From NCBI GenBank assembly GCA_028749255.1, contig JAQTYE010000014.1, forward strand, positions 1-32,530: a stretch of 32,530 nucleotides of DNA. The letters are read 5' to 3'. The position numbers were made by a program, and so were the translations under genes. Positions 4,480 through 29,277 of this stretch are shown piece by piece. Under the pieces are notes generated by a model that did not search any database, was not told where the DNA came from, and saw nothing but the letters and a program-made list of their open reading frames with translations. The DNA comes from Paracoccaceae bacterium. Lineage in GTDB: Bacteria > Pseudomonadota > Alphaproteobacteria > Rhodobacterales > Rhodobacteraceae. Numbering within the stretch: position 1 is the stretch's first letter; each line of letters opens with the position of its first letter.

Positions 4480-4496
4480 CATTCCAATTCGGAATG
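4480..4496. promoter_or_regulatory. Palindromic candidate operator, copy 1
   Basis: CATTCC-AATTC-GGAATG (perfect 6+6; 8+8 when extended to ATCATTCC..GGAATGAT), upstream of the ABC transporter SBP gene. Confidence 0.6.
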
Positions 4497-4581
4497 ATTG
4501 GCGCGATTTTCCTTGAAAAACCGGGGCTTGGTGCCGCGCTGCAGCATGTGCGGTGCGCAGGTTGTTTGGCGCAGTTTTATC

Positions 4582-4602
4582 TGTGCGTAAAATTTTCGCA
4601 CA
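4582..4602. promoter_or_regulatory. Palindrome TGTGCG-N9-CGCACA in divergent intergenic region
   Basis: TGTGCGTAAAATTTTCGCACA read directly. Confidence 0.4.
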
Positions 4603-4778
4603 TTTTGGGCGCTCATGGACGATTCTCAATCTATTTTCAAATTACTATTATAATTAACTGGTTGCGCTCCGGGTTTTGCCTGCGTGGTCGTGGTGGTGCA
4701 GATCTGTGTCGGTTTTGCGTAGATGTTGCGGGGTCGATCGCCTTTTGTGACTTCTGGGTCGCTGGGGTGGACGTTTGG

Positions 4779-4795
4779 CATTCCATATTGGAATG
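4779..4795. promoter_or_regulatory. Palindromic candidate operator, copy 2
   Basis: CATTCC-ATATT-GGAATG, identical arms and spacing to copy 1, upstream of the FAD oxidoreductase operon. Confidence 0.6.
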
Positions 4796-4887
4796 ACATC
4801 AGGCGCACACAGAACTGGCCTTCCGTGACGCTTTCGGGCACTCAAAAAGGGCGCGGCACTGTCGCCGCAGATTTTTGCCGGAGCCCG

Positions 4888-6174: not shown

Positions 6175-6181
6175 GGCGATA

Positions 6182-7603
6182 ATGGCGGATATGCAGGCAA
6201 GTGGCATGGCGCTGACGCGCGGTGACATCATCGCGCGTCTGGCCGGAGTGCTGGCCGTGGTCATGATCGGCGCGCTCGTTGTGGGCCAGATCGGCGCGCG
6301 GTTTGTGCCGGGCTGGGCGGTGCTGAACTGGGTCGCGGCCGGGGCCGCAGTGGTGCTGGCGTTGATACGGCTGCCATATGTGCAACCGATCACGCGGAGC
6401 TTTGCGATCGGGGCGCTGGCGGTGGCAGCACTCGTCGCGCTGGCCGCCCCCGAAGCGCAGCCGGCGATGACCCGCGCGTTGTTTCAGGGCACCGCGTTTT
6501 CCGCGTTTCTGACCTCGCTCGGGTTGATCCGGGCGCCGGTGCGCGCCTCGCGTCTGATCGGGGTGGCGGCGTCCCGTCTGTTTGCCTATCCGGCAAGGAT
6601 GCGCAGTGCCGCGATGACCTTTGGTGCGCAGTTCCTGTCGGTGTTGTTCAATATCGGCACCATTGGCATGATGTCGGACATCGCCGCCGATCACGCCGCC
6701 CGCGCCCGCACCGAAGGCAAGCCGGGCATCGACCCGGTGCCGGTCACCTTGGCGGCGTTGCGTGGGACAATTTTGATGACTGTCTGGAATCCGATTGGCG
6801 TTGGTTTTGCGATTGTGACCTCGGCGATCCCGGGGCTGGACCCGATGCGGTTTCTGGCGCTGAGCTTTGGCGCCGCGATGCTGGTCTCGGCGGGAAGCCT
6901 GCTGATCGGGCGGGGCGCGGCCGCCGCTGACCCCGAAAGCACCGCGACGGGGCGGGGCGGGCGGGCGCTGGCGGCGATTCTGGCGGCTGTGGCCGGGCTG
7001 ATCGCGGTGACGCTGGCGCTGCATCGGGCGCTGGATATCAGTTTTCTGGTCGCCGCCTGTCTGGTGCTGCCGCTGCTGGCCGTTCTGTGGCCGCGACTGG
7101 AACCCGCCGCCCGCGCGCCCAAAGACACCCGCCCGCTGGATGCCCTGTCCGAGGCGTCGGCCACGATGGCGAATGAGGCGACGATTTTTCTGGCCGCCGC
7201 CGTGATCGGTGCCGGGGTGTCGGTGGCGCTCCATGCGTTGGGCATCGCGGCACTGATCGAAAATGGTGCGCTGCTGGCCCTGGCGATCATTCTAGGCTGT
7301 CTTGTGCTGATTCCGCTGGCCGCGGCGTTGATGATCCCGCATTCGATTGTCATGGTGATGGCTGCCCAATTGTTTGGTGCGGGGCCTGTCGGCGCTGCAC
7401 ACCCGTTTGCTCTGGCGCTGGCGTTGTGCTTTGCATGGGCGCTGGCAATTTCGGCCTCGCCGATTTCGGCCATGTCGATCATCACCGGGCGGCATTTGAA
7501 CCTGCCACCCACGCGCGTCACCTTTGCCGTCAACCGCGCCTTCACCCTGTACGGGTTGGCGACGGCGGCGGCGCTGATCACCCTCACCTATTTTCTGGAA
7601 TAA
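6182..7603 (+). CDS. Multi-TM integral membrane protein, possible transporter, family not recognised
   Basis: About 473 aa, many hydrophobic helices; NEATIFLAAAVIGAG and IPHSIVMVMAAQLFG...WALAISASPISAMSIITG; sits between the FAD oxidoreductase (7 bp gap) and the ALDH. Confidence 0.6.
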   Translation: MADMQASGMALTRGDIIARLAGVLAVVMIGALVVGQIGARFVPGWAVLNWVAAGAAVVLALIRLPYVQPITRSFAIGALAVAALVALAAPEAQPAMTRALFQGTAFSAFLTSLGLIRAPVRASRLIGVAASRLFAYPARMRSAAMTFGAQFLSVLFNIGTIGMMSDIAADHAARARTEGKPGIDPVPVTLAALRGTILMTVWNPIGVGFAIVTSAIPGLDPMRFLALSFGAAMLVSAGSLLIGRGAAAADPESTATGRGGRALAAILAAVAGLIAVTLALHRALDISFLVAACLVLPLLAVLWPRLEPAARAPKDTRPLDALSEASATMANEATIFLAAAVIGAGVSVALHALGIAALIENGALLALAIILGCLVLIPLAAALMIPHSIVMVMAAQLFGAGPVGAAHPFALALALCFAWALAISASPISAMSIITGRHLNLPPTRVTFAVNRAFTLYGLATAAALITLTYFLE

Positions 7604-7623
7604 GCCCCAAGGAAGGACACTCC

Positions 7624-9135
7624 ATGTCGCTTGCAACCGAAACCCGCACCCTGCTTGATACACTTGGCGTCGAGGCCGCCCGTTACACGACCGGTACGAT
7701 GGCCAGCTTCAGCCCGGTGACGGGCGAGCAAATCGGGACGCTGGTCACCGATACGCCCGACACTGCTGCAACCGCCATTGCCCGCGCCAAACTGGCCTTC
7801 AAGGAATGGCGGATGGTGCCTGCGCCCAAACGCGGCGAGCTGGTGCGCCTGATGGGGGAAGAGCTGCGCGCCTCGAAGGATGCCCTGGGCAAGCTGGTGT
7901 CGATCGAGGCGGGCAAAAGCCCGTCCGAAGGCTTGGGCGAAGTGCAGGAAATGATCGACATCTGCGATTTCGCCGTGGGCCTGTCGCGGCAGCTGTATGG
8001 TCTGACCATCGCCACCGAGCGCCCCGGCCACCGGATGATGGAAACCTGGCATCCACTGGGCGTGGTCGGCGTGATCTCGGCGTTCAACTTCCCGGTTGCG
8101 GTCTGGGCGTGGAATGCGGCGCTGGCCTTTGTCTGCGGCGATCCCGTGATCTGGAAGCCATCGGAAAAGACCCCGCTGACCGCGCTGGCCTGCGAGGCGA
8201 TTTTGGCCCGTGCCATCGCCCGCTTTGGCGCCGCGCCCGCAGACCTGAGCCAGGTTCTGATCGGGGCAGGCGATGTTGGCAATGTGCTGGTCGAAAGCCC
8301 GGATGTCGCGCTGATCTCGGCCACCGGATCGACCCGGATGGGGCGGATCGTCGGGCCGAAAGTGGCGGCACGGTTCGGGCGTTCGATCCTTGAACTTGGC
8401 GGCAATAACGCGGGTATCGTCTGCCCCTCGGCCGATCTGGACATGACGCTGCGCGCGGTGGCCTTTGGCGCGATGGGCACGGCGGGGCAGCGCTGCACCA
8501 CGATGCGGCGGCTGTTCGTGCATGACAGCGTTTATGACGCGCTGGTGCCGCGGCTGATCAAGGCCTATGCCAGCGTTTCGGTCGGCAACCCGCTGGAAAC
8601 CCAGGCGCTGGTCGGGCCGTTGGTTGACAAGCTGGCCTTCGATGCGATGCAAAACGCGCTGGCGGCGGCCAAGGCCGCGGGTGGCACGGTGCATGGCGGC
8701 GAACGCGAATCCGTCGCCTCGAACGCGGCGTATTACGTGCGCCCGGCGCTGGTCGAGATGCCCGAACAGACCGGCCCGGTGCTGGACGAAACCTTTGCGC
8801 CGATCCTGTATGTGATGAAATACAGCGATTTCGACGCGGTGATCGAAGGCCATAACGCGGTTGGCGCGGGTCTGTCCTCGTCGATCTTCACGCTGGACAT
8901 GCGCGAGATGGAAACCTTCCTGTCGGCGCGAGGGTCCGATTGCGGGATTGCCAACGTCAATATCGGCACCTCGGGGGCAGAAATCGGCGGTGCCTTTGGC
9001 GGCGAAAAAGAGACCGGCGGCGGGCGCGAAAGCGGCTCGGACGCGTGGCGTGGCTATATGCGGCGCGCGACCAATACGATCAACTTCTCGCGCGAGTTGC
9101 CGCTGGCGCAGGGCGTCACCTTCGACATCGACTGA
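7624..9135 (+). CDS. Aldehyde dehydrogenase, ALDH7/antiquitin-like (alpha-aminoadipic semialdehyde / piperideine-6-carboxylate dehydrogenase)
   Basis: ELGGNNAGIVCPSADLDM, GTAGQRCTTMRRLFVHD catalytic Cys, C-terminal GGGRESGSDAWRGYMRRATNTINFS typical of ALDH7/AmaB. Confidence 0.82.
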   Translation: MSLATETRTLLDTLGVEAARYTTGTMASFSPVTGEQIGTLVTDTPDTAATAIARAKLAFKEWRMVPAPKRGELVRLMGEELRASKDALGKLVSIEAGKSPSEGLGEVQEMIDICDFAVGLSRQLYGLTIATERPGHRMMETWHPLGVVGVISAFNFPVAVWAWNAALAFVCGDPVIWKPSEKTPLTALACEAILARAIARFGAAPADLSQVLIGAGDVGNVLVESPDVALISATGSTRMGRIVGPKVAARFGRSILELGGNNAGIVCPSADLDMTLRAVAFGAMGTAGQRCTTMRRLFVHDSVYDALVPRLIKAYASVSVGNPLETQALVGPLVDKLAFDAMQNALAAAKAAGGTVHGGERESVASNAAYYVRPALVEMPEQTGPVLDETFAPILYVMKYSDFDAVIEGHNAVGAGLSSSIFTLDMREMETFLSARGSDCGIANVNIGTSGAEIGGAFGGEKETGGGRESGSDAWRGYMRRATNTINFSRELPLAQGVTFDID

Positions 9136-9142
9136 GGCGAAC

Positions 9143-10384
9143 ATGACCGCACATCTTCCTGAAACGGCCGGGTTCGTCCCGGCCGATCGGATCGCCACGC
9201 TTGGCGTCTCCGAGATCCTGCAGATCGGCGCGCGCGCCGCGGCGCTGAAACGCGCGGGCCGTCCGGTGATCATTCTGGGCGCGGGCGAGCCCGATTTCGA
9301 CACGCCAGACTGCGTGAAAGATGCCGCCACCCAGGCGATGGCCGAGGGGCGCACAAAATATACCGCGCTGGATGGCACGCCCGAACTGAAGGCCGCGATT
9401 GCCGCGAAATTCAGGCGCGAGAATGGGGTGGAGTATACCCCGGCCGAAATCACCGTGGCGACCGGCGCCAAGCAGGTGCTGTTCAATGCGCTGATGGCGA
9501 CGCTGAACCCCGGGGATGAGGTCATCATCCCGACGCCCTGCTGGACGTCCTATTTCGACATCGTGCAGATCGCGGGTGGTGTGCCGGTGGCCGTGCCCTG
9601 CGAAGATGCACAGGGGTTTCGTCTGAACGCCACCGATCTGGCCGCCGCGATCACCCCGCGCAGCCGCTGGGTGATTTTGAATTCGCCTTCGAACCCGACG
9701 GGGGCGGCCTATTCCGAGGCCGAGTATCGCCCGTTGCTGGAGGTGTTGCTGGGCCATCCGCAGTTGTGGCTGATGGTCGATGATATGTATGAACATATTG
9801 TCTATGACGATTTTCGTTTCGTCACCCCCGCCGCGCTGGAGCCGCGGTTGAAATCGCGTATCCTGACGGTGAACGGTGTCTCCAAGGCCTATGCGATGAC
9901 GGGCTGGCGCATTGGCTATGCCGGTGGCCCGGAACCGTTGATCAAGGCGATGGCCGTGGTGCAAAGCCAGTCAACATCTTGTCCCTGCTCGATTTCGCAG
10001 GCCGGGGCGCTGGCGGCGCTGACCGGTCCGCAGGATTTTCTGGCTGCCCGGACCGAAAGCTTCCGCCGCCGTCGCGATCTGGTGGTGGGCGCGCTGAACG
10101 CCATTCCCGGGATCAGCTGCCGGGTGCCGGAAGGGGCGTTTTATACCTTCGCCTCTTGTGCCGGGATGATCGGCAGGACCACGCCGTCGGGCCGGGTGAT
10201 CGGGTCGGATCGCGACTTCTGCGCCTGGCTGCTGGACGAGGCGGATGTGGCGATGGTGCCCGGTGCGGCCTTTGGCCTGTCGCCCTATTTCCGTATCTCG
10301 TATGCGACCTCCGAGGCGGAACTGACCGAGGCTTTGGCGCGGATCACCACTGCTTGCGCGACGCTTGCGGCGCCGATGGCCTGA
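9143..10384 (+). CDS. PLP-dependent class I/II aminotransferase (aspartate aminotransferase-like)
   Basis: GAGEPDFDTPDCVKDAA, KYTALDGTPELKAAIAAKF, NSPSNPTGAAYS, PLP-Lys motif VNGVSKAYAMTGWRIGY. Confidence 0.92.
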   Translation: MTAHLPETAGFVPADRIATLGVSEILQIGARAAALKRAGRPVIILGAGEPDFDTPDCVKDAATQAMAEGRTKYTALDGTPELKAAIAAKFRRENGVEYTPAEITVATGAKQVLFNALMATLNPGDEVIIPTPCWTSYFDIVQIAGGVPVAVPCEDAQGFRLNATDLAAAITPRSRWVILNSPSNPTGAAYSEAEYRPLLEVLLGHPQLWLMVDDMYEHIVYDDFRFVTPAALEPRLKSRILTVNGVSKAYAMTGWRIGYAGGPEPLIKAMAVVQSQSTSCPCSISQAGALAALTGPQDFLAARTESFRRRRDLVVGALNAIPGISCRVPEGAFYTFASCAGMIGRTTPSGRVIGSDRDFCAWLLDEADVAMVPGAAFGLSPYFRISYATSEAELTEALARITTACATLAAPMA

Positions 10385-13224: not shown

Positions 13225-14442
13225 ATGCAAAAGACCGCAACCGCCTGCACCGGGCGACGTTTTGGCACGGCGTTGCTGCGCAGGGTGATTTTGGCGGGGA
13301 TCAGTGCCGTGTGGCTTGGGCCTGCGGCGGTGGCGCAGCCAGCGGATCTGTCGGCGTATCTGCAGCAGGTGCAGCAGGAATACGATCTGCCTGCGCTGGC
13401 GGCGGCAGTGGTCAAGGATGGCCAGGTGATTGCGGCGGCGGCGGTGGGCACGCGGGTCTGGCACGGCCAGGTGCCGGTCAGCATCAATGACCGCTTTCAT
13501 CTGGGGTCGAACACCAAATCCATGACCGCGACGCTGGCGGGCATGATGGTGGATGAAGGTCGCCTGAGCTGGTCCTCGACCGTCGGCGAGGTTCTGGGCG
13601 CCGACGTGCCGGGGCTGAGCCCGAGCCTGGCCAAGGCCACGCTGGAACAGCTGCTGTCGCATTCGAGCGGCATTCCCGGCGACACTGACGAAATGCTGAC
13701 GCTGTATTTCAACGAAAATGTCTTTGATTACAATCCGCCCGCGCTGCGCCTGCACACGCTGGCGGCCTGGAAAAACCACGATCTGGTGATGCCCGAAGGC
13801 TCACCGTTTCAGTATTCCAATTTCGGCTACATGATCGCGGGCTCGATGATCGAAAAGGTCGCGGGCACGCCGTGGGAACAGCTGATGTATGAGCGCATCT
13901 TCGGGCCGATGGGGATGGAAACGGCGCGGCTGGGTGCGCAGGCGACCTATGGTCTGGTTGATGCGGCTGTCGGGCACCGGGTGCAGCCCGATGGCACGAT
14001 CATGCCAATGCTGTGGGGGCCTGCGGCCGATGTGCCGACGGTGATCGCGCCTGCGGGCAACGCCAATATGTCGGTCCTGGATTACGCGAAATGGGCGGGG
14101 TGGAATGCGGGGCAGGGTAAACGTGGCCCCGCGCTGGTCACACCCGAAACGCTGAACGTGATCCAGTCCAGCCATGTCCAGACGCCGGTGCGCCGCAATC
14201 CGCCGCCGGGCACGCCGGAAACCGGCGGGTACGGGCTGGGCTGGGGGATCGTGGCGTTCGACTGGGCGGGCAAGCCCTTGTTGACGCATAACGGCTCGAA
14301 CTCGATGAACCTTGCCCGGCTGGTGATTGATCCTGATCAGGATCTGGGCGTGGTGGTGCTGACCAATTTCGCCAGCCAACCCGCCAATGTCGCGGTGGGT
14401 GAGGTGATGCAGCATCTCTATCAGACTTATGCCGATCCCTGA
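13225..14442 (+). CDS. Exported beta-lactamase-fold serine hydrolase (class C / S12-like)
   Basis: N-terminal signal-like segment; SxxK = SNTK, YxN = YSN (FQYSNFGY), HNGSNSM near C-terminus; start at MQKTATACTG with AAAGGGA upstream. Confidence 0.87.
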   Translation: MQKTATACTGRRFGTALLRRVILAGISAVWLGPAAVAQPADLSAYLQQVQQEYDLPALAAAVVKDGQVIAAAAVGTRVWHGQVPVSINDRFHLGSNTKSMTATLAGMMVDEGRLSWSSTVGEVLGADVPGLSPSLAKATLEQLLSHSSGIPGDTDEMLTLYFNENVFDYNPPALRLHTLAAWKNHDLVMPEGSPFQYSNFGYMIAGSMIEKVAGTPWEQLMYERIFGPMGMETARLGAQATYGLVDAAVGHRVQPDGTIMPMLWGPAADVPTVIAPAGNANMSVLDYAKWAGWNAGQGKRGPALVTPETLNVIQSSHVQTPVRRNPPPGTPETGGYGLGWGIVAFDWAGKPLLTHNGSNSMNLARLVIDPDQDLGVVVLTNFASQPANVAVGEVMQHLYQTYADP

Positions 14443-14497
14443 CCCTGTCCCCCTGATTGCGCCGCACGCGCAAGACCTCGCATTAAAGGAGATGGCC

Positions 14498-15205
14498 ATG
14501 TGCAACGACTGTTCCAACCAATCCGTCAGCCGACGTAACCTGCTTGTCGGCAGCCTGGCGCTTGCCGCTGCGGGCGCCCCGATGTCATCAGCGGTGGCGC
14601 AGACCGCCGAAGCCGCGCCGGTATCCCCCGACGAGGCCTTGCAACGTCTGATCGATGGCAATGCCCGCTATGTGGCCAATGCGCCGATCAACACCGACCA
14701 TTCGGTTGGGCGCGCTGAACGCGCCGCAGGGCAACGCCCCTTTGCCGCTATTGTCAGCTGTTCGGATTCGCGCGTGGCGCCCGAACTGCTGTTCGATCAG
14801 GGGCCGGGTGCGCTGTTCGTGGTGCGGGTCGCGGGCAATTTTCTGAATGAAGACGGGATTGCCAGCCTTGAATATGGCGCGGCCGTTCTGGGTATCAAAC
14901 TGATCGTGGTTCTGGGGCACAGTGCATGCGGGGCGGTTGGCGCGACGATTTCCTCGATTCAGGACAACGTTTTGCCGCCGGGCCATTTGCCCAGCCTTGT
15001 CAATGCGATCCGCCCTGCGGTCTATGACGCGATGCGGGACGGCGCCACCGATCTGCTGGGCGCAGCGACGGTGCAAAATGCCAAAAGCAACGCCGAACGC
15101 GCGCAGACCGAAGGCCCGATCCTGTCCGATCTGCACGGGGCGGGCAAGCTGCGGGCGGTGGCCGGGGTTTACGACATCAGCACCGGACAGGTGGGCTTTC
15201 TGTGA
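14498..15205 (+). CDS. Beta-class carbonic anhydrase with Tat-type signal peptide
   Basis: Zn ligands in CSDSRV and HSACGAVGA; VAGNF; N-terminus MCNDCSNQSVSRRNLLVGSLALAAAGAP. Upstream in-frame ATG at 14492 is an alternative start. Confidence 0.9.
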   Translation: MCNDCSNQSVSRRNLLVGSLALAAAGAPMSSAVAQTAEAAPVSPDEALQRLIDGNARYVANAPINTDHSVGRAERAAGQRPFAAIVSCSDSRVAPELLFDQGPGALFVVRVAGNFLNEDGIASLEYGAAVLGIKLIVVLGHSACGAVGATISSIQDNVLPPGHLPSLVNAIRPAVYDAMRDGATDLLGAATVQNAKSNAERAQTEGPILSDLHGAGKLRAVAGVYDISTGQVGFL

Positions 15206-15256: not shown

Positions 15257-16156
15257 TCAGCTCGCCAGCGCCATCGCGGGCGCGATCAGACGGTCAAGCG
15301 CCCCGCGCCCTGCCGCCGACAGCGGCATCAGGGGCAGGCGCAGATGTTCCGCGATCAACCCTTCACGGGCCAGCATGTGCTTGACCGGCGCCGGGCTCGA
15401 TTCCACGAACATCGCTTCGGCCAGCGGCACAATGGCCTCATGCAGGGCCAACGCTTCGCCTGCGTTGCCTGCAGCCCAGGCGTTATACAACGCCATGCAG
15501 ACTTCCGGGCGCCAGTTCGACAGAACCGAGGTCAGCCCGCGCGCGCCAAGCGCAAAGAACGGCAGCGCCAGCCCGTCATCGCCGCAATGCACCACGAATT
15601 CGGGGCCGGCGGCGGCCCGCAGCGCGGTCACCCGCGCCGGATCGCCGCCCGCTTCCTTGATCGCGACGATGTTGGCATGGCTTGCCGACAGCGCGGCTGC
15701 GGTTGCGGGGGTGATGGAAACCCCGGTCCGCCCGGGCACGGAATACAGCATGACATCGCACGGCACCGCATCAGCCACCGCGCCGAAATGCGCGATCAAA
15801 CCGTCTTGCGAAGGTTTGTTGTAATAGGGCGTGATCAGCAGCACGCCATCGGCGCCCGCATCGGCGGCGCGCTTGCTGGCGGTGATCGTGGTGCCGGTCA
15901 CGTTGCAGCCCGATCCGGCCAGAACATAGGCTTTGCCTTCGGCGCGTTTCACCGTGCGGGTGATCACGGCAAGGGCTTCGTCTTCGGTCAGGGTCGCGGC
16001 CTCGCCGGTGGTGCCGACGGGCACCAGCCCGGTAATGCCTGCCTCCAGCTGGCGATCCAGCAGCCGATCAAAAGCCGCCCAGTCGATGCTCAGATCGGCG
16101 TTGAACGGGGTGACAAGGGCGGTGAAAACACCGTCGAAGCGGGTGAGGTTGGTCAT
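15257..16156 (-). CDS. Dihydrodipicolinate synthase (DapA) family aldolase/lyase
   Basis: VGTTGEAATLTEDE, YYNKPSQDGLIAHF, LYSVPGRTGV, Schiff-base Lys in AIKEAGGD. Physiological role may not be lysine biosynthesis (see findings). Confidence 0.88.
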   Translation of the reverse strand: MTNLTRFDGVFTALVTPFNADLSIDWAAFDRLLDRQLEAGITGLVPVGTTGEAATLTEDEALAVITRTVKRAEGKAYVLAGSGCNVTGTTITASKRAADAGADGVLLITPYYNKPSQDGLIAHFGAVADAVPCDVMLYSVPGRTGVSITPATAAALSASHANIVAIKEAGGDPARVTALRAAAGPEFVVHCGDDGLALPFFALGARGLTSVLSNWRPEVCMALYNAWAAGNAGEALALHEAIVPLAEAMFVESSPAPVKHMLAREGLIAEHLRLPLMPLSAAGRGALDRLIAPAMALAS

Positions 16157-16821
16157 GCGGTTTCCTTGAACATATCGGTTGCGGAATAAAGGCCAGCCGG
16201 GCGGCCGATCAGCCAGCGTGCGGCGGAAAGGGCGCCCGCCGCATAGGCCGCACGCGAGCGGACGGTCATTGTCAGGTCGATCCGGCTGACGCCCAGATCG
16301 AGGGTGATCGTGTTGATCCCCGGCGTATCGCCGACCCGCCCGATTTCGGTGTCGGGGGTGCGGCCCGGGCTGGCCAGATCGGCCACCAACTGCTGCGTGG
16401 TTCCCGAAGCCAGGGGTTTCTTGGCGGCGTTATAGACCTCGCCGACGATCAGCCGGGCGTCGGGCAGGGCCGCGGCCAGAAGTTGCGCCGCCATGCGGAA
16501 CGGCTCGAACCCCAGGGTGAAATTCGCGGCCATCAGAACCGGGCGGATGTGGGCCTCGGCCTCGATCCGGGCCAGATCGGTGGCGGCGAACCCGGTCGTG
16601 CCGATCACCAGTGGCTGCGCGGTTCCAGCCATCCGGTCAAGCAGCGCGAGCGTGCCTGCGGGGGACGAAAAATCGACCACCACATCGCCAGTGAAGGTGG
16701 CCGCCGGCACCTCGGCACGCCCCGTGATCGCCTCGCCCAGCGTCAAATCGGGACTTTCGGCGATCTGCGCCAGAACGGCGGCGCCGACCTTGCCGCCTGC
16801 GCCATGAACGACCACCCGCAT
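16153..16821 (-). CDS. Divergent, short dihydrodipicolinate reductase (DapB)-like protein
   Basis: NAD motif VVVHGAGGKVGAAV, DVVVDFSSPAGTLALL, IGTTGFAATD, AANFTLGFE, EVYNAAKKPLASGTT; about 222 aa and lacking the usual HH of the active-site motif. Confidence 0.78.
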   Translation of the reverse strand: MRVVVHGAGGKVGAAVLAQIAESPDLTLGEAITGRAEVPAATFTGDVVVDFSSPAGTLALLDRMAGTAQPLVIGTTGFAATDLARIEAEAHIRPVLMAANFTLGFEPFRMAAQLLAAALPDARLIVGEVYNAAKKPLASGTTQQLVADLASPGRTPDTEIGRVGDTPGINTITLDLGVSRIDLTMTVRSRAAYAAGALSAARWLIGRPAGLYSATDMFKETA

Positions 16822-18218
16822 CAGTCGATCACCACGCGGGTTTCCGACATCTCGCGCAGCGCGATCCGCACGCCTTCGCGGCCCAGCCCCGACCGTTTGA
16901 TGCCGCCGAAGGGTACATGTTCGGCGCGGAAATCGGGGCCTTCGTTGATCATCACGCCGCCGACCTGCAGCCCGCGCGACAGTTTGCGGATCGCGGCGTG
17001 GTCATTGCTGAAAACCCCCGCCTGCAAGCCGAAATCAGAGCTGTTGATCTCGGCCATCGCGGTATCAAGGTTGCGGAACGGGCGGATCGCCAGCACCGGG
17101 CCAAAGGTTTCGTCCGCGATCAGTTTCGCATCCAGGGGCACATCGTCAATCACCGTCGGCGCGATCAGATTGCCGTCGCGGGTGCCCCCGGTCAGCAGCC
17201 GCGCCCCAAGCAATTTGGCCTCGTCCAGCCGTGCCATGATTTCCTGCGCGGCGGGGGCGTCGATCACCGGGCCCATCTGGGTGTCGTCCGAGGACGGATC
17301 GCCGAAGCGGTGCTGCGCGACCTTGTTCAGCAAGATCTCGGTGAAGGCGTCGCGCACCGTTTCGTGGACATACAGTTTTTTCACCGCGGCGCAGCTTTGC
17401 CCGGCGATTTCATAGCGGTGTCCGATGGCGGTTGCGGCGGCGGCCTCCAGATCGGCATCGGGCAACACGAACAGCGGGTCGTTGCCGCCCAACTCCATCA
17501 GACAGCGCACCAACCCCGAGGCGCGTTTCAGTGCCAGCCCTGCGACCGGCCCGCCGGTGAAGGACAGAAGGTCGATCGGCGCGCAGGCCAGCGCGGTCGC
17601 GGCGGCCGCCCCGCCGTGCACAATCTGCACCAGATCGCGCGGGAAGCCTGCCTCTTGGGTCAACTGCACCAGATGTTCGGCGGCGAAGGGCGCCTTCGGC
17701 GAAGGCTTCACCACCACCGCATTGCCCGCCGCGATGGCCGGGCCCAGTTTGTGGCACAAAAGGTTCAGCGGATAGTTGAACGGCGTGATCGCGGCGACGG
17801 TGCCGGTCGGCACATAGGTGATTGCCGCGTGACGGTCCACGCCGCCCTCGATCACCGCGCAATTGAGCACTTCGCCATCCAGAAACGACACCGCCTCGCC
17901 CGACAGACGCAGGGTGTTGACGGCGCGGCGCGACTCGTTGCGGGCTTCGGTGATCGTCTTGCCCATCTCGGCGCAGATCATCTGGGCCAGGATTTCGCGA
18001 TCCCGCACGACCAGATCGGCCAGACGGTCCAGCAGCGCGCGGCGTTCATAGGGCATCGAGGCGCGGAACGCCGCCGCAGCCTGACGGGCACGCAAAACAG
18101 TGGCCAGGATTTCGCTGTCCGAGGTTTCGGGCAGTTGCCCGATCCGCGCGCCGGAAAACGGGTTGCACACTTCGAATTCGGGGGCGGCGGCGATCATCGG
18201 GGAGGACAGGGTCATCAT
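16821..18218 (-). CDS. NAD(P)-dependent aldehyde dehydrogenase
   Basis: PFNYPLNLLCHKLGPAIAAGNAVVVKPS, LSFTGG, ELGGNDPLFVLPDADLEAA, catalytic Cys in GQSCAAVKKLYVHE, FGGIKRSGLGREG; start MMTLSSPM overlaps the preceding stop by 1 bp. Confidence 0.9.
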   Translation of the reverse strand: MMTLSSPMIAAAPEFEVCNPFSGARIGQLPETSDSEILATVLRARQAAAAFRASMPYERRALLDRLADLVVRDREILAQMICAEMGKTITEARNESRRAVNTLRLSGEAVSFLDGEVLNCAVIEGGVDRHAAITYVPTGTVAAITPFNYPLNLLCHKLGPAIAAGNAVVVKPSPKAPFAAEHLVQLTQEAGFPRDLVQIVHGGAAAATALACAPIDLLSFTGGPVAGLALKRASGLVRCLMELGGNDPLFVLPDADLEAAAATAIGHRYEIAGQSCAAVKKLYVHETVRDAFTEILLNKVAQHRFGDPSSDDTQMGPVIDAPAAQEIMARLDEAKLLGARLLTGGTRDGNLIAPTVIDDVPLDAKLIADETFGPVLAIRPFRNLDTAMAEINSSDFGLQAGVFSNDHAAIRKLSRGLQVGGVMINEGPDFRAEHVPFGGIKRSGLGREGVRIALREMSETRVVID

Positions 18219-19516
18219 CAGGTTCCTTCGGAGGGGAGGGGGGCCGCGCCCGTGTCGGACGTGGCCGCGATCAAATCGGCAATGGCAATCGGGGCAAGCG
18301 GCCACCGGGCGCGGCCGAGCGGGGTATCGGGGGGGGGCAGGCCAGGGTCATCGGCACTGGCCCGGGCGACCCATTCGCCGCACGATCGGCCCTGGCAGGG
18401 GCCCATGCCGAACCGGCCCAGCAGGCGCAACTCGCGCACCCGCGGCGTCGGCCCAAGCGCGCGCAGATCATCCAGCGTGCCGCCTTCGCAGCGGCAGATC
18501 ACCGTGCCACCGGGCAGATCGGCCAGCCGCGCCATTGCGTCATGCGCATAGATCCGCGCCAGTCGCTGTTGCGCCGCGCGTTCGCGGACCAGCGTGGTGG
18601 ACGGAACCGTCTCGCGCGGGGTGCCGTTTGTCAGCGCGCGGGCCAGCGCGATCCCCCCCGCCCGACCCGAGGCCAACGCCGCGCGGGCGCCCAGCACTTC
18701 GGCGCAATCGCCCAAGGCCAGCACCGGGACGGCGGCGCAGGCCGTCACGCCGCCATCATTCTTGCGGATGCCGTCATGCAGGCCGACACGATCCACGGTG
18801 AACACGCGCGGGCCTTTTGGTGTTTCGACCCGCACGCTCAGCGCGGTGCCTTCGGCGCGGATGGCCACAACCTCGGCGCGGGTCAGGATCGGCACGCGGG
18901 CGCGGATCAGCGTGGCCATATAGCCCGCCGCCTCGCGCAGATAGCTGAGCGGCAGGGCCAGGCTGTGCAGCGGGTGCGCGAAGGGCGCAGCGCTTTCCAC
19001 AATCGCCACAGGCGGGTTGCCCAGCCGGGTCATCTGCGCCGCGACGGCGATCAGCAGCGGGCCATTGCCAGCCAGCAAAACCCGGCCCTGCGGGGCCAGC
19101 CCCTGCGTTTTCAGCTCGATCTGCAAGGCGCCCGCCGTGGTCACGTTGGGCAGGGTCCAACCGGTGCGGGGCCGCACCGCCTCGCGTGCACCCAGTGCCA
19201 GAACCAGCGCTGCAGGCCGCATCAGCCGGTTTGTTGCGCCGGACAGCAGCGCGGTGCCGGTATGGTCGAGCCCGGCGAATTTCGTCTCGAACGCCCAGTC
19301 GATCGGCAGGGCTTGGGCCTCGGCGATCAGCCGATCCCAGCGCGCGGCATGCGACGAGATGGCGGCGCGCCCGGGCAGCGGTTGGCGGTGGATCGCACCA
19401 CCCGCGCGCGGCGCACGGTCTGCGACCAGAACGGGTTGACCCGCGCGGGCCAGTTCGACGGCGGCCCCAACTCCGGCCAGACCGGCGCCGACCACCAGCA
19501 CCTGAGCCTTAGTCAT
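18218..19516 (-). CDS. FAD/NAD(P)-dependent oxidoreductase subunit (opine oxidase A / HcnB / hydroxyproline dehydrogenase type)
   Basis: VLVVGAGLAGVGAAVELARAGQPVLVAD; C-terminal BFD-like Cys motif VICRCEGGTLDDL...GMGPCQGRSCGEWV. Confidence 0.87.
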   Translation of the reverse strand: MTKAQVLVVGAGLAGVGAAVELARAGQPVLVADRAPRAGGAIHRQPLPGRAAISSHAARWDRLIAEAQALPIDWAFETKFAGLDHTGTALLSGATNRLMRPAALVLALGAREAVRPRTGWTLPNVTTAGALQIELKTQGLAPQGRVLLAGNGPLLIAVAAQMTRLGNPPVAIVESAAPFAHPLHSLALPLSYLREAAGYMATLIRARVPILTRAEVVAIRAEGTALSVRVETPKGPRVFTVDRVGLHDGIRKNDGGVTACAAVPVLALGDCAEVLGARAALASGRAGGIALARALTNGTPRETVPSTTLVRERAAQQRLARIYAHDAMARLADLPGGTVICRCEGGTLDDLRALGPTPRVRELRLLGRFGMGPCQGRSCGEWVARASADDPGLPPPDTPLGRARWPLAPIAIADLIAATSDTGAAPLPSEGT

Positions 19517-19766
19517 GGTTGATCTCCTGTTCGGGGCCAACGCGCAGGCCGTCACGGCAGAGCGTCAGGCAGGCTTCGACCGTGCGTCCGTCAATCTGCA
19601 CAAGGCACATCTGACATTGGCCGATCCCACAAAATACCGCGCGCGGGACGCCCACGGGGCCGGGCCCGAAGGCGGCGATTCCGGCGCGGGTCAGGGCATG
19701 GGCGACGCTTTCGCCGGGGGTGAAGGCCAGTATCCGGTCGCGCCAATAGATCACAGGTCCGCTCAT
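19509..19766 (-). CDS. Small [2Fe-2S]-binding subunit of multi-component amino-acid dehydrogenase
   Basis: PRAVFCGIGQCQMCLVQIDGRTVEACLT; sandwiched between the FAD subunits as in opine oxidase / D-hydroxyproline dehydrogenase systems. Confidence 0.88.
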   Translation of the reverse strand: MSGPVIYWRDRILAFTPGESVAHALTRAGIAAFGPGPVGVPRAVFCGIGQCQMCLVQIDGRTVEACLTLCRDGLRVGPEQEINHD

Positions 19767-20920
19767 GCCGCGCCCTCCTGCAAAGCGGTGAATCGGGTGG
19801 GCGCGAGGGCGGCCAGATCGCCACTCAGCGCAGGCGTCGGGGCTTCGTCTGCGGCCATACGCGCCACTTCGCGCCCGATCACCGCTGACAGGCAAATGCC
19901 GTCGCCTTCAAATCCGGTTGCCAGCGTCACCCGCGTCGATCCCGGCGCAAGGCCGACAATGGGCAATCCGTCGCTGACTGCGGCACGAACCCCGGCAAAG
20001 GCGCGGATCACCCGGCGGTTGCGCAGCGCGGGCCAGGTTTCGGCGGCGCGTGTCATCAGTTTTTGCAGGGTCGCGAAATCGACGCGCCCGGGATCGGCGT
20101 GATCCTCGCGGGTCGAGCCGATCAGATATTGCCCGGTGCTCAGCGGGTCGATCACTACGGGCGGGCGCGGCAGTGCCGTCATGTCGGTGGTCTTGGCCAG
20201 CAGATAGGCCGCCGAGGTCAGCGCCCCGGGCAGCGCGCCGGGCGCGCCGCGGTCGGTCACGAACAGCTGGCCCGCGCGCGGGATCACCGGCATTTGCGGG
20301 AACAGCGTGGTGGTCGAGACGCCAAGGGCTGCGATCACGCGGGAGGCATGCAGCCGCCGCGTTCCCAGATCGACGATGACGCCCGCGTCGGTTTCTTCCA
20401 GACCGCGCACGCGTGCGGGCCAGATTTTCACGATGCGTGGATCGCGCAGATAGCCCGCCACGGCCACATAGCCGGGCATATGCCCCTCGCCGGTCAGTTC
20501 GACCAGACGTTCGACCGAAGCGCCGGTGCCGGGCAGCAGATCGGCCGCTCCGTCGCGCCGCAGCCGCACCGCATCGCCCAACGCATCGAGCTTGGCGATC
20601 AGCGCATCAATGGCCGCGCCTTCTGCGGGACCAGAGCCGAAAATATAGGTCGGGCGTGGGTGATAACCGTGCATCAGCGGCCCGTCAGCGGCCAGATTGC
20701 GGGTATAAAGCAACGAGGCTGTCGCCAGACGTGCCAGCGGCCCGGGCTTTTTCGAAGCGACCGAAACCGCCCCGTCCGAGGCCCCCGAGGCCGCAGCCGC
20801 TGGGCCTTCGGCATCGACCAGCGCCACCGACAGCCCGGCCTGCACAAGATGCCAGGCCGTGGAGGCACCGATAACCCCGGCCCCCAGAACAATGGCATCA
20901 TATCGGCCTAAATCGTCCAA
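19763..20920 (-). CDS. FAD-dependent DAO-family oxidoreductase subunit (opine oxidase B / HcnC type)
   Basis: DAIVLGAGVIGASTAWHLVQAGLSVALVDAEGPAAAASGASDGAVS; C-terminal GLAPGSTRVTLATGFEGDGICLSAVIGREVARM. Confidence 0.88.
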   Translation of the reverse strand: MDDLGRYDAIVLGAGVIGASTAWHLVQAGLSVALVDAEGPAAAASGASDGAVSVASKKPGPLARLATASLLYTRNLAADGPLMHGYHPRPTYIFGSGPAEGAAIDALIAKLDALGDAVRLRRDGAADLLPGTGASVERLVELTGEGHMPGYVAVAGYLRDPRIVKIWPARVRGLEETDAGVIVDLGTRRLHASRVIAALGVSTTTLFPQMPVIPRAGQLFVTDRGAPGALPGALTSAAYLLAKTTDMTALPRPPVVIDPLSTGQYLIGSTREDHADPGRVDFATLQKLMTRAAETWPALRNRRVIRAFAGVRAAVSDGLPIVGLAPGSTRVTLATGFEGDGICLSAVIGREVARMAADEAPTPALSGDLAALAPTRFTALQEGAA

Positions 20921-21225: not shown

Positions 21226-22068
21226 ATGAGCTTTCTGAAAACCCTTGCCGGCAGTGTTCTGGCGGCGGCGTTGTCGCTGGGCGCCAGCCTGGGCGCGGCG
21301 CAGGCGCAGGACCAATCGGTTGTCGATCAAATCCGCGACCGCGGCACCCTGCGGATCGCAGGCATCCTTAACGAAGATCCCTATTTCTCGAAAGACCCGC
21401 GCAGTGGCGAATGGCGTGGCTTTGTCGTCGAGATGGGCAAGGACATGGCGGCGACGCTGGGCGTCGAGTTGGAAGTGGTCGAATCGAGCTGGGCCAATTC
21501 GATCCTTGATGTGCAGTCGGGCAAGGTCGATCTGGCCTTCGCGCTGACCGCATTGCCGACGCGCGCGCTGTCGGTCAGCTTTTCCAGCCCGACCTATTAC
21601 AATTCCTTCGTGATGATCTCGCCGAAGGAAGAGCTGAAGGGCAAAACCTGGTCCGAGCTGAACGATCCGAAATACACCGTCGCGGTGGACATGGGGTCGT
21701 CGCAGGATCTGATCACCCAGCAATATCTGCCGAAAGCCAACGTGTTGCGTTTCAAGACCCGTGACGAGGCGATTCTGGCGCTGACCACCGGCAAGGCCGA
21801 TGCGGTGATCAACACGGTGCTGAACGGCATGGTGATGACCAAGAAGAACGCGGCCCTGGGCAAGGTGTACATTCCGCAGCCGGTGCTGTCCTCGCCGTCG
21901 GTGATCGGGATGAAGCTGGACGGCGATACGACCTGGAAAGGCTTCGTGTCGGCCTGGGCGGATTACAACCGCCGCGTTGGCAATAACCAGACCTGGATTC
22001 TGAAAGGGCTCGAACCCTTTGGCGTGACGCTCGAAGATCTGCCCGAAGGCTTTGATGTGAACGGCTGA
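21226..22068 (+). CDS. Amino-acid ABC transporter substrate-binding protein
   Basis: Signal peptide (LAGSVLAAALSLGASLGAAQAQ), IRDRGTLRIAGILNEDPYFSKD..GFVVEMGKDMAATLGVELEVVESSWANSILDVQSGKVDLAFALTALPTRALSVSFS. Confidence 0.92.
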   Translation: MSFLKTLAGSVLAAALSLGASLGAAQAQDQSVVDQIRDRGTLRIAGILNEDPYFSKDPRSGEWRGFVVEMGKDMAATLGVELEVVESSWANSILDVQSGKVDLAFALTALPTRALSVSFSSPTYYNSFVMISPKEELKGKTWSELNDPKYTVAVDMGSSQDLITQQYLPKANVLRFKTRDEAILALTTGKADAVINTVLNGMVMTKKNAALGKVYIPQPVLSSPSVIGMKLDGDTTWKGFVSAWADYNRRVGNNQTWILKGLEPFGVTLEDLPEGFDVNG

Positions 22069-22159: not shown

Positions 22160-22822
22160 ATGTATCACTGGGACTTCTACACGGTCCTGCAGTCCTTTGA
22201 CCTGTTTTTGATGGGGATCTGGACGACCTTTCTTTACACGATCGGGTCGATCTCGATCGGTGTTGTTGTGGGCCTTGCCGCCTGTTTCGCGCGTCTGTCG
22301 CATCGCGCGCCAGTGCGCCTGCTGGCGCGGTCCTATCAGGAACTGTTCCGTTGCACGCCGCTTCTGGTGCAGATCCTGTGGGCCTATTACGCGCTGCCGA
22401 TGATCCTCGGGATCTCGATTTCCAACACGGCGGCCGGGCTTTTGATGCTCTCGCTCTATGTCGGCTCGTTCTACGCCGAGATTTTCCGCGGCGGCATTCT
22501 GGCGATCGACAAGGGTCAAAGCGAGGCCGCCCATGCCGTCGGCATGTCGGGGGTGCAGGCGATGCGCCACATCATTCTGCCGCAGGCGGTCAAGAAGATG
22601 CTGCCCGCCTTCATCAACCAGTCGGTGGTGCAGGTGAAGAACACGTCGCTGCTGTATGCGATCTCGATTGCCGAACTCACCTACATGACCTCGGTCGTGA
22701 ACTCCGAAACCTACCGTCCGCTCGAAGCCTATTCCCTGGCTGCCGTGCTGTATTTCGTGATGCTGTTCCCGCTCACGCAAGTGGCCGACTATTTCGAGCG
22801 CCGGATGCGCCGCAGCGATTGA
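22160..22822 (+). CDS. Amino-acid ABC transporter permease
   Basis: [64 protein letters not shown]; start at [10 protein letters not shown]. Confidence 0.92.
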
Positions 22823-22833: not shown

Positions 22834-23598
22834 ATGACCCATTCTGACGAGACCGTCATCCGCCTACGTGGCCTGCGCAAGAAATTCGGCACGCTCGAGG
22901 TGCTCAAGGGGATCGACCTTGATCTGCATCGCGGCGAGGTGCTCAGCGTGATCGGGCCTTCGGGTTCGGGCAAATCGACGTTGATCCGCTGTCTGAACCT
23001 GATGGAAGAACCGACCGACGGCAGCTTTACCTTTCAGGGCCGCGAGGTCTCGCCGAAATTCCGTGCCAAGGCGCCGGCGATCGGCGCGGGCGAATTGCGC
23101 CGCCGTGTCGGCATGGTGTTTCAGCATTTCAACCTGTTCCCGCATCTGAGCGTGATCGACAATATCACCAAGGGCCCCCGCACCGTGCTGGGCGAAGACC
23201 GCGCGCCCGCCGAAGCCCACGCGATGGAGCTGCTGGAAGAGGTCGGTCTGGCCGACAAGGCGCGCGCCTATCCCGCGCATCTGTCGGGCGGTCAGAAACA
23301 ACGCGTGGCGATTGCCCGCGCGCTGGCGCTGCGCCCCGAGGTGATGCTGTTCGACGAGCCGACCTCGGCGCTGGACCCCGAACTGGTGGGCGAGGTGCTG
23401 GCGGTGGTGCGGCGGTTGGCCGAAGGCGGCATGACGATGGTGCTGGTCACCCACGAGATGGGTTTTGCCGCCGATGTGGCAAGCCGTGTGTTGTTCATGG
23501 AAAACGGAATGATTGCGGAACAGGGTAGCCCGCATGACATCCTGCGTGCACCGAAATCCGAACGTCTCAAGGGCTTTCTGGCCCGGTTCCACGCGTGA
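22834..23598 (+). CDS. Amino-acid ABC transporter ATP-binding protein
   Basis: Walker [71 protein letters not shown] upstream of ATG. Confidence 0.94.
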
Positions 23599-23606: not shown

Positions 23607-24704
23607 ATGGACCAGGTTGTCATTCTGGGCGCGGGGCGGATCGGGCGGCGGATCGCCGAACTGTTGCAGCCACGTGCCGCGGTCGTTCTGGTGGATCACG
23701 ACACCGACAAGCTTGATCTGGCGCAGTCTGCGGGGCTGGTCGTGGCGCCGCTGCCGCCCGGGGCCTCGCGCGTGGCGTTGCGGCAGGTTCTGGCGGGGGC
23801 GGCGGCGATGATTGTTGTCGATCCGTTCCTGCCTGCGCCCGATCTGGCGGCGCTCTGCGCCGAGGCGGGGTGCCATTACCTTGACCTGCTGGAAAGCGAT
23901 GACAGCGCGCGCGAGGTGGCAAGGGCTGCAGCGAATGCGCCTGCCGGGTTGCGCATTGCGCCCGGCTGTGGGTTGGCGCCGGGGTTTGTGACCGCGCTTC
24001 TGGCCGATGAAATCGCGCGCAGCCCGGCCAGTGCGGAAATCACCGCCTATGTGGGTGTGCTGCCGTTAAAGCCCGCGAACCGGCTGGGATACGCCAATAT
24101 CTGGGGCATTCAGGGGCTGATGCAGGAATATACCCGCCCGGTGGTGACGCTGCGCGAGGGGGCGCTGGCCCAGGACGCGCCGCTGAGCGGTCTGGAAACC
24201 GTGGTCTTGGGCGGGATCGAGCTGGAGGCTTTTGCGACCGCAGGCAGCATCGACGCGCTGGCGCGGCGCCATGCGGGCGATCTGCGCGGGCTGGGGTTCA
24301 AGACGCTGCGCTACCCGGGCCATCGCGATTACATGTTGTTTTTGCTGGATGACATGGGGCTGCGCCACCAATTGCACCGGCTGTCGAGCCTGCTGATGAC
24401 CGCACTGCCCGCGACCGAGGCCGACCGCGTGATGATCGCGCTGCGCACCGTCAGCGCACCGGGCGCGCGGCCGCGCTGGGGGATCTGGCACCATCTGGCG
24501 GCCCCGGGCCCGGATGGCCAGTTGCGTTCGGCGATGGCGACGCTGGCGGCGGCGCATGTGGTGGCGATGTGGGATTATCTGCGCACGACCCCGGAGGCCG
24601 GACCGGTGCTGATGGCGGGCGATGTGCCGCTTGCGTGCTTGCAGGCCAGCCCTGCCTTTGCTTTGCTGGCGCCAGAGCCGCCGATACACAGCGCCTCGGC
24701 CTGA
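23607..24704 (+). CDS. Saccharopine dehydrogenase / lysine 6-dehydrogenase family-like protein
   Basis: VVILGAGRIGRRIAELL, HYLDLLESDD, PGCGLAPGFVTALLADEI; overall resembles the Sacchrp_dh_NADP/lysine dehydrogenase fold. GTG start at 23595 is possible. Confidence 0.72.
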   Translation: MDQVVILGAGRIGRRIAELLQPRAAVVLVDHDTDKLDLAQSAGLVVAPLPPGASRVALRQVLAGAAAMIVVDPFLPAPDLAALCAEAGCHYLDLLESDDSAREVARAAANAPAGLRIAPGCGLAPGFVTALLADEIARSPASAEITAYVGVLPLKPANRLGYANIWGIQGLMQEYTRPVVTLREGALAQDAPLSGLETVVLGGIELEAFATAGSIDALARRHAGDLRGLGFKTLRYPGHRDYMLFLLDDMGLRHQLHRLSSLLMTALPATEADRVMIALRTVSAPGARPRWGIWHHLAAPGPDGQLRSAMATLAAAHVVAMWDYLRTTPEAGPVLMAGDVPLACLQASPAFALLAPEPPIHSASA

Positions 24705-24716: not shown

Positions 24717-25643
24717 ATGGCAGAGCGGGAATTCAACGACGGTCCGGTGGGCTCGACCCGGCGTCAGCCGAAGGTCGATATCGCGCTGCTGCAGACCTTT
24801 CACCTTGTCGCGCGCACCGGGTCGTTTTCGGCCGCCGCACGCGAATTGAACCTGTCGTATCAATCGGCCGCCAACCATGTGCGCCGACTGGAACAGATGT
24901 ATGGCGCGCGGCTGCTGGAAACCGAACAGGGTTCGCGCAAGGTCACGCTGACCGCGCAGGGCAAGGCGCTGCATGCCTCGCTGGGCGAAGAACTGGACAC
25001 CATCCTGTCGCGGATTTCGGTGCTGTTGCACGATGTGCGGTCGGTGCTGCGGGTGGGCGTGCCCCAGGCGTTGTTTCACCATTTCTTTCCGGCGATCTTG
25101 CAGGATTTCCGCGCCGAGGCGCAGGATATCGACCTCGCGTTTTTCGAACGCGACACTTTGCTGGAATCGATGATGCTGGATGGGGCCCTGGATGCGGCGG
25201 TCAGCGAGCGCAGCTTCAATCAACCCGCGATCGCGCAGCACGAACTGGGCAGCTATCGGTTGGCACTGGTCTGGCCGCGCGCCTGGGGGGTGGATGTCGC
25301 CACGGATGGGTTCGAGGCGGTGATCGACCGGCCATTCATCAGCTATGAAACCGGGCAGGCGCTGCGCACGCGTTCGGTCGAGTATCTGACGCGGCGCACC
25401 GGGCGGGCGCCACGGGTCGCGACCTCGGCCTCGGGCAGCACCTCGGTCACGCAGCTGATCCGCGCGGGGCTGGGCTTTGGCGTAACACCCGACTGGGCGG
25501 TGCCCGACGACGATCCGCAGCTTGACAAGATCGTGCTGCATGAAATCGAGCCAGTGAAAATCTGGTTCTCGCATACCGCGTTTCTGGGGACGAACCGCTA
25601 TGTCCGGTTGCTCAAACAGGTGTGCGAGGCGCATCTGAGCTGA
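24717..25643 (+). CDS. LysR-family transcriptional regulator
   Basis: LLQTFHLVARTGSFSAAARELNLSYQSAANHVRRLEQMYGARLLE HTH; substrate-binding domain follows. Confidence 0.9.
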   Translation: MAEREFNDGPVGSTRRQPKVDIALLQTFHLVARTGSFSAAARELNLSYQSAANHVRRLEQMYGARLLETEQGSRKVTLTAQGKALHASLGEELDTILSRISVLLHDVRSVLRVGVPQALFHHFFPAILQDFRAEAQDIDLAFFERDTLLESMMLDGALDAAVSERSFNQPAIAQHELGSYRLALVWPRAWGVDVATDGFEAVIDRPFISYETGQALRTRSVEYLTRRTGRAPRVATSASGSTSVTQLIRAGLGFGVTPDWAVPDDDPQLDKIVLHEIEPVKIWFSHTAFLGTNRYVRLLKQVCEAHLS

Positions 25644-26781: not shown

Positions 26782-26836
26782 ATTTCGCCCCGCAGTCACG
26801 CTAACCTGCCCGTCTGAGTTGGTAAGGGAGGAAACC

Positions 26837-29246: not shown

Positions 29247-29277
29247 TAACTTCTCCTCCTCAGTCAGTGCAGATTGA

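What the first reader, a model, noticed from the sequence alone, without database searches (positions are those of the whole stretch)
16396..16443. DapB-like protein has lost the catalytic His-His of dihydrodipicolinate reductase
Seen: the position of the conserved E-x-HHxxKxDAPSGTA motif reads E-V-YNAAKKPLASGTT, so HH becomes YN while the Lys and SGT are retained. The protein is about 222 aa, versus about 270 in typical DapB. Nucleotide-binding GAGGKVG and NFTLG are kept. Established: the first His and the Lys of this motif are key DapB catalytic residues. Inference: a repurposed imine reductase/dehydrogenase with a different substrate, not lysine biosynthesis.
Basis: partly seen in the sequence, partly recalled or inferred. 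Interest (0 to 1): 0.7.

Follow-up and report, generated by a model that had tools for sequence, protein, structure and literature searches.

The report
DapB paralogue in a catabolic operon
This gene encodes an intact relative of the lysine-biosynthesis enzyme DapB whose active site has been altered; it sits in a conserved but undescribed amino-acid uptake and breakdown gene cluster of Alphaproteobacteria, so it is probably an imine-handling enzyme with a new substrate rather than a lysine gene.

Summary
Window 16153-16821 (-) encodes a 222-aa DapB homologue whose HH..K..PSGT motif reads YN..K..ASGT. The change is not a decayed copy. Six related clusters carry orthologues, and all 7 proteins have Tyr at E. 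coli H159, keep K163 and lack D165. The second His is lost only in the window's pair of genomes (Asn/Lys) and is kept in 5 of 7. The 7 form one clade (100/100), score below NCBIfam's dapB cut-off, and dN/dS is 0.24. AlphaFold/Foldseek gives a complete DapB fold. The short length means nothing: T. maritima DapB is as short. Canonical dapB and dapA lie elsewhere in the genome.

The gene is the fifth of a tight six-gene operon: a three-subunit flavin amino-acid/amine dehydrogenase, an aldehyde dehydrogenase, this protein and a DapA paralogue. Divergent to it lie an amino-acid ABC importer, a lysine-6-dehydrogenase-like protein and a LysR regulator. The DapA paralogue keeps every catalytic residue checked and has lost the lysine-feedback site.

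Best reading: a catabolic pathway in which the DapB paralogue interconverts a carboxylated imine with its amine. Substrate and direction are not established. One cluster lacks the gene and has a racemase-family gene instead.

The parts
16153..16821 (-). DapBL: DapB paralogue, 222 aa; Tyr130 (E. coli H159), Asn131 (H160), Lys134 (K163), SGT 139-141, Arg190 (R240)
16396..16443 (-). altered catalytic motif GEVYNAAKKPLASGTT (residues 127-142)
15257..16156 (-). DapAL: DapA (DHDPS) paralogue; keeps T44, T45, Y107, Y133, R138, K161; lysine-feedback residues S48, H53, H56, E84 lost
16821..18218 (-). aldehyde dehydrogenase, nearest NCBIfam models sulfoacetaldehyde / lactaldehyde / phosphonoacetaldehyde DH (all below cut-off)
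18218..19516 (-). alpha subunit of flavin dehydrogenase (FAD/NAD-binding, pyridine-nucleotide reductase type)
19509..19766 (-). gamma subunit: small 2Fe-2S (Fer2_4) protein
19763..20920 (-). beta subunit: DAO-family flavoprotein (amino-acid/secondary-amine dehydrogenase)
21226..22068 (+). amino-acid-type ABC solute-binding protein; carboxylate Arg kept, Asp at the ammonium position (compared with AncCDT-1) replaced by Thr
22160..22822 (+). ABC permease (HEQRo_perm_3TM family)
22834..23598 (+). ABC ATP-binding protein
23607..24704 (+). saccharopine-dehydrogenase-superfamily protein, nearest full-length solved relative PDB 3abi (PH1688, L-lysine 6-dehydrogenase)
24717..25643 (+). LysR regulator of the cluster

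Best explanation
DapBL is a functional, repurposed DapB-family NAD(P)-dependent oxidoreductase that acts in an amino-acid catabolic pathway, not in lysine biosynthesis. Proposed pathway: the ABC importer brings in an amino-acid derivative; the flavin dehydrogenase complex (DAO + 2Fe-2S + FAD subunits) oxidises a C-N bond to an imine/2-oxo acid; DapAL, a DHDPS-like lyase freed from lysine feedback, cleaves (or forms) the C-C bond of an HTPA-like 4-hydroxy-2-oxo intermediate to pyruvate plus an aspartate-semialdehyde-like aldehyde; and the aldehyde dehydrogenase oxidises that aldehyde to an acid. DapBL interconverts the cyclic or alpha-imine with its amine. Tyr in place of the first catalytic His would serve as proton donor or stacking residue, and K163 with the SGT loop would still hold a carboxylate. 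Shown: fold, family, active-site substitutions, cluster conservation, purifying selection, presence of the housekeeping copy. Inferred: the chemistry of each step, the direction, and that the changed residues change the substrate.
For: Canonical dapB and dapA elsewhere in the genome; G006 and G450 also hold both DapBL and a canonical dapB. Same gene set in Sinirhodobacter sp. WL0062 (G006), Ciceribacter, Ensifer canadensis, Pannonibacter, Martelella and G450. Clade 100/100 apart from 30 canonical DapBs. H159->Y 7/7, D165 lost 7/7, R240 lost 5/7, K163/SGT/T104 kept 7/7; in M. tuberculosis DapB these positions contact the substrate analogue PDC (K136, R214, T143, G142, T77, H133, D138 by water, H132 by stacking; PMC7793862). 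All 7 score 85-117.5 bits against the dapB cut-off of 122. dN/dS 0.24, like DapAL 0.22 and the flavin subunits 0.19-0.32. AF2 pLDDT 93.2; top Foldseek hits are all DapB, TM about 0.8. DapAL keeps T44/T45/Y107/Y133/R138/K161 in 8/8 and has lost S48, H53, H56 and E84.
Against: No substrate, cofactor or direction was measured. The Rhizobiales-type orthologues keep H160 and lose R240 while the window protein keeps R240 and loses H160, so the pocket itself is not uniform within the clade. DapBL is missing from an otherwise matching cluster in Chelatococcus, so it cannot be an obligate step there. A dehydrogenase direction is as compatible with the sequence as a reductase direction. Residual HTPA reduction is not excluded.
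Confidence: 0.6

Rival explanations
1. Semialdehyde-sink: the pathway produces L-aspartate semialdehyde, and DapAL plus DapBL are a feedback-insensitive DapA/DapB pair that drains it (with pyruvate) into the lysine pathway; DapBL is then still an HTPA reductase, only slower.
For: DapAL keeps all DHDPS catalytic residues checked, including R138, and has lost the lysine-feedback residues. DapA and DapB genes are adjacent. A homoserine-dehydrogenase / ALDH / DapA / aspartase cluster in Agrobacterium pusense pairs an ALDH with a DapA in a setting where aspartate semialdehyde is expected.
Against: DapBL has lost H159 and D165 in 7/7 and either H160 or R240, residues that contact the substrate analogue in M. 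tuberculosis DapB. The genome already has a normal dapB. The A. pusense ALDH is only 37% identical to the window's.
Confidence: 0.2
2. Stereo-inversion: the flavin dehydrogenase and DapBL work as an oxidase / imine-reductase couple that inverts the stereocentre of the imported amino acid, doing the job of a racemase.
For: The one cluster without DapBL (Chelatococcus) has an Asp/Glu-racemase-family gene directly after the SDH-like gene, and none of the 7 DapBL clusters has one in the stretches fetched. Clusters with related binding proteins pair SBP with that racemase family and a DAO-family oxidoreductase. The P. aeruginosa DauA/DauB pair is a precedent (own knowledge, not tested).
Against: Only one DapBL-less case; stereochemistry cannot be read from sequence.
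Confidence: 0.2
3. Hydroxyproline-type pathway (D-hydroxyproline dehydrogenase, HypD deaminase, alpha-ketoglutarate-semialdehyde DH), with DapBL as a pyrroline-carboxylate reductase.
For: Same enzyme classes: alpha/beta/gamma flavin dehydrogenase, DapA-family enzyme, ALDH.
Against: DapA-family proteins next to proline racemases have S44, L/V107 and Y/S138, while DapAL has T44, Y107 and R138, and the DapA tree puts DapAL with DapA. No proline racemase/epimerase was found in the window's genome.
Confidence: 0.05
4. Decaying or non-functional duplicate of dapB.
For: Active-site histidines lost; absent from the Chelatococcus cluster.
Against: dN/dS 0.24; one substitution pattern across 7 genomes in several families; complete confident fold; start/stop overlaps with neighbours kept.
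Confidence: 0.04

Closest known systems
4-hydroxy-tetrahydrodipicolinate reductase DapB (TIGR00036; PDB 1vm6 T. maritima, 1arz E. coli)
   Same: Whole fold, Rossmann GxxGxxG, K163, S168-G169-T170, T104, Pfam DapB_N and DapB_C
   Different: H159->Tyr, D165 lost, H160 or R240 lost; below the family cut-off; catabolic operon; a housekeeping dapB exists elsewhere in the genome
4-hydroxy-tetrahydrodipicolinate synthase DapA (partner gene DapAL)
   Same: Over the TIGR00674 cut-off (294 vs 206 bits); every catalytic residue checked kept
   Different: Lysine-feedback residues lost; N134->S and I203->T in all 8; in a catabolic operon
Hydroxyproline catabolic clusters (D-hydroxyproline DH + HypD + ALDH)
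   Same: Classes of enzymes
   Different: DapAL has DapA-type, not HypD-type, residues; no proline racemase/epimerase in this genome
Three-subunit amino-acid/opine dehydrogenases (HcnABC, LhpBEF, Oox/Nox type; from own knowledge)
   Same: DAO-family beta, 2Fe-2S gamma and FAD/NAD alpha subunits in tandem
   Different: Substrate unknown; the other homologues listed in plasmid records are about 41% identical, in Sinorhizobium
Saccharopine-dehydrogenase superfamily: L-lysine 6-dehydrogenase (3abi), carboxyspermidine dehydrogenase
   Same: Domain architecture of the SDH-like gene
   Different: No His-Glu-Glu triad of carboxyspermidine dehydrogenase seen; least conserved protein of the cluster

Membership tests
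DapB (HTPA reductase) | DapB_N and DapB_C domains over Pfam cut-offs | tested here: met
   68.5/25.6 and 44.9/27 bits
DapB (HTPA reductase) | Score over the curated equivalog cut-off (TIGR00036, 122 bits) | tested here: not met
   85.4 bits; orthologues 92-117.5; own canonical copy 241.7
DapB (HTPA reductase) | Catalytic His-His | tested here: not met
   Y-N; first position Tyr in 7/7 cluster paralogues, His-His in 30/30 canonical
DapB (HTPA reductase) | Catalytic Lys and SGT loop | tested here: met
   7/7
DapB (HTPA reductase) | DapB fold | tested here: met
   AF2 pLDDT 93.2, Foldseek 1vm6 E 2.8e-21
DapB (HTPA reductase) | Reduces HTPA/DHDP; needed for lysine and DAP synthesis | not testable with these tools
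   A separate canonical dapB is present, which makes a lysine role unnecessary
DapA (for partner DapAL) | T44, T45, Y107, Y133, R138, K161 | tested here: met
   8/8
DapA (for partner DapAL) | Lysine-feedback site S48, H53, H56, E84 | tested here: not met
   S48->A, and H53, H56 and E84 absent in all 8
Hydroxyproline catabolic cluster | HypD-type DapA paralogue | tested here: not met
Hydroxyproline catabolic cluster | Proline racemase / hydroxyproline epimerase in the genome | tested here: not met
   0 matches in G000
Carboxyspermidine dehydrogenase (for the SDH-like gene) | His-Glu-Glu active-site sequence (PMC10413350) | tested here: inconclusive
   No conserved HEE seen by eye in the alignment; no residue-level alignment to a CASDH was made

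The most novel reading that the evidence does not exclude
The cluster is an undescribed catabolic pathway that runs DapA-type chemistry backwards: an HTPA-like cyclic imine produced by the flavin dehydrogenase is cleaved by DapAL to pyruvate and aspartate semialdehyde (or an analogue), with DapBL as a Tyr-based imine reductase acting on the same ring system.
Probability: 0.25. Interest if true: 0.7.

Novelty: new variant of a known kind. Interest (0 to 1): 0.48.

Why it matters
DapB is a drug and herbicide target treated as mono-functional, and annotation pipelines assign its paralogues to lysine biosynthesis (the Pannonibacter and Martelella genes carry that GO term). A clade with a conserved His->Tyr change, next to a feedback-free DapA paralogue and a flavin dehydrogenase, points to a catabolic use of the DapA/DapB pair and gives a concrete, testable gene set for finding the substrate.

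Tried and rejected
Hydroxyproline pathway: rejected on DapA-family residues and absence of proline racemase. Length as a sign of repurposing: rejected (T. maritima DapB is as short). Pseudogene: rejected. Homoserine/canavanine-type cluster: only DapA and ALDH are shared, at 41% and 37%. A remembered paper on canavanine use was not held. Literature searches for the cluster or for DapB paralogues in catabolism found nothing that describes it. The genome-contig scan returned only G006; a phylum-wide draw of 349 genomes found only the window itself. The NAD+-driven reverse of true DapB (THDP to DHDP) was considered and thought unlikely on thermodynamic grounds (own estimate). PDB search gave no neighbour for the DAO subunit at the cut-off used.

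Full report
OBSERVATION. The ORF at 16153-16821 (-) encodes 222 aa from an ATG; the motif GEVYNAAKKPLASGTT spans 16396-16443 exactly. The protein belongs to the DapB family: both Pfam DapB domains are over their cut-offs and all PDB sequence hits are DapB. Against 30 canonical DapBs, His159, His160, Lys163, Asp165, Pro167 and Ser168-Gly169-Thr170 are invariant in the canonical set and Arg240 is 29/30. The window protein has Tyr, Asn, Lys, Pro, Ala and SGT at those positions, and Arg at 240.

NOT THE LYSINE COPY. The genome (99.7% complete) has a canonical dapB on contig C224 (241 bits, cut-off 122) and a canonical dapA on C242. The window protein scores 85 bits, below the equivalog cut-off, as do all six orthologues (92-117.5). 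G006 and G450, which also carry the paralogue, each have a canonical dapB too.

A CONSERVED CLUSTER. On the minus strand, with overlapping or nearly touching reading frames, lie a DAO-family flavoprotein, a small 2Fe-2S protein, an FAD/NAD-binding protein, an aldehyde dehydrogenase, the DapB paralogue (DapBL) and a DapA paralogue (DapAL). Divergently on the plus strand lie a binding protein, a permease and an ATPase of the amino-acid type, a saccharopine-dehydrogenase-superfamily protein and a LysR regulator. The same set occurs in G006 (Sinirhodobacter sp. WL0062), G450 and, on plasmids, in Ciceribacter thiooxidans, Ensifer canadensis, Pannonibacter phragmitetus and Martelella mediterranea. 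It is rare: 1 of 397 genomes drawn from the family (the window itself), 2 of 386 from the class, 1 of 349 from the phylum, and 1 of 17 other genomes of the genus. In the class search the paralogues score 314-336 bits and the next match, a canonical DapB, 135 bits, so the group is well separated.

ANATOMY OF THE ACTIVE SITE. The 7 paralogues form one group with 100/100 support against 30 canonical DapBs. All 7 have Tyr at H159, keep K163, S168-G169-T170 and T104, and lack D165. H160 is kept in five and is Asn/Lys in the window pair; R240 is kept in the window pair and lost in the five. Simulations of M. tuberculosis DapB with the substrate analogue PDC report contacts with the matching residues K136, R214, T143, G142, T77, H133, D138 (by water) and H132 (stacking) (PMC7793862). 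The Lys/SGT carboxylate site is therefore kept and the rest of the pocket is changed. That H159 and K163 are the proton donors of E. coli DapB is from own knowledge and was not tested here.

FUNCTIONAL, NOT DECAYED. dN/dS between the window and G006 is 0.24 for DapBL, against 0.22 for DapAL, 0.16 for the aldehyde dehydrogenase and 0.19-0.32 for the flavin subunits (NG86). AlphaFold2 gives mean pLDDT 93.2, and Foldseek's best matches are T. maritima DapB chains (1vm6_A: E 2.8e-21, TM 0.83/0.86), with the listed top 50 all DapB/HTPA reductases. T. maritima DapB is 228 aa in its PDB entry with an intact HH motif, so the short length is no argument.

THE PARTNERS. DapAL passes the dapA equivalog cut-off (294 vs 206 bits). 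In 8 of 8 clusters it keeps T44, T45, Y107, Y133, R138 and K161 and has lost the lysine-feedback residues S48, H53, H56 and E84. DapA-family proteins beside proline racemases have S44, L/V107 and Y/S138 instead, and the DapA tree places DapAL next to canonical DapA. The window's genome has no proline racemase. A hydroxyproline pathway is therefore unlikely, and an aldehyde partner with a carboxylate, like aspartate semialdehyde, is the natural inference from R138. In all eight binding proteins the carboxylate-binding Arg position is kept, while the Asp of the reference AncCDT-1 at the ammonium position is Thr. Reading this as a ligand without a free alpha-ammonium is inference. The saccharopine-dehydrogenase-like protein is nearest to L-lysine 6-dehydrogenase 3abi.

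DISPENSABILITY. Chelatococcus sp. CO-6 has the same cluster without DapBL, with 28 bases between the aldehyde dehydrogenase and DapAL, and with an Asp/Glu-racemase-family gene after the SDH-like gene. No such racemase was found in the fetched stretches of the seven DapBL clusters, and no DapBL in the Chelatococcus stretch. Binding-protein relatives elsewhere are paired with the same racemase family in A. pusense and Bosea, and possibly in G770, where the racemase is about 4.3 kb away. This suggests, on one case only, that DapBL plus the flavin dehydrogenase could replace a racemase.

MECHANISM. Best reading: imported amino-acid derivative -> flavin dehydrogenase -> imine/2-oxo acid -> DapAL C-C cleavage (or condensation) -> pyruvate + carboxylated aldehyde -> aldehyde dehydrogenase -> acid. 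DapBL interconverts the carboxylated imine with its amine, with Tyr130 as possible proton donor. Only the gene set, residues, fold and selection are shown; every chemical step is inferred. Rivals are a semialdehyde sink using true DapA/DapB chemistry, and stereo-inversion; they are not separated by the present data.

NOVELTY. The paralogues are already annotated generically ('dihydrodipicolinate reductase C-terminal domain-containing protein'). No paper describing the cluster or its function was found in the library, which lacks most subscription journals. New variant of a known kind.

Noticed in passing
window 369-10384: A second amino-acid uptake and catabolic cluster: LysR, two permeases, ATPase and binding protein on the minus strand, and DAO-family oxidoreductase, aldehyde dehydrogenase and class I/II aminotransferase on the plus strand.
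   Followed up: partly
window 26819-28030: Serine hydrolase that scores well over the NCBIfam cut-off for methyl acetate hydrolase AcmB (706.6 vs 550 bits), beside an AndR/AraC-type regulator.
   Followed up: no
window 14429-15205: Pro_CA (beta-type) carbonic anhydrase with a twin-arginine-like signal (SRRNLL), probably exported, convergent with the DapAL end of the operon.
   Followed up: no
window 28152-31138: TRAP transporter (DctP, DctM, DctQ) next to a LysR regulator; substrate unknown.
   Followed up: no
L050 (Agrobacterium pusense plasmid IRBL74_p, record 190245-207090): Cluster with homoserine dehydrogenase, ALDH, a DapA paralogue, aspartate ammonia-lyase and homoserine kinase: another catabolic setting for a DapA paralogue.
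   Followed up: partly
L047, L048 (Sinorhizobium pSymA): A related three-subunit flavin dehydrogenase (beta subunit about 40% identical) beside an amidase and an ABC transporter, with no DapA or DapB; diaminopropionate ammonia-lyase nearby in S. medicae.
   Followed up: no
window 23607-24704 and orthologues: The saccharopine-dehydrogenase-like protein is the fastest-evolving member of the cluster (dN/dS 0.38; 30-38% identity outside the genus) although its gene is always present.
   Followed up: no
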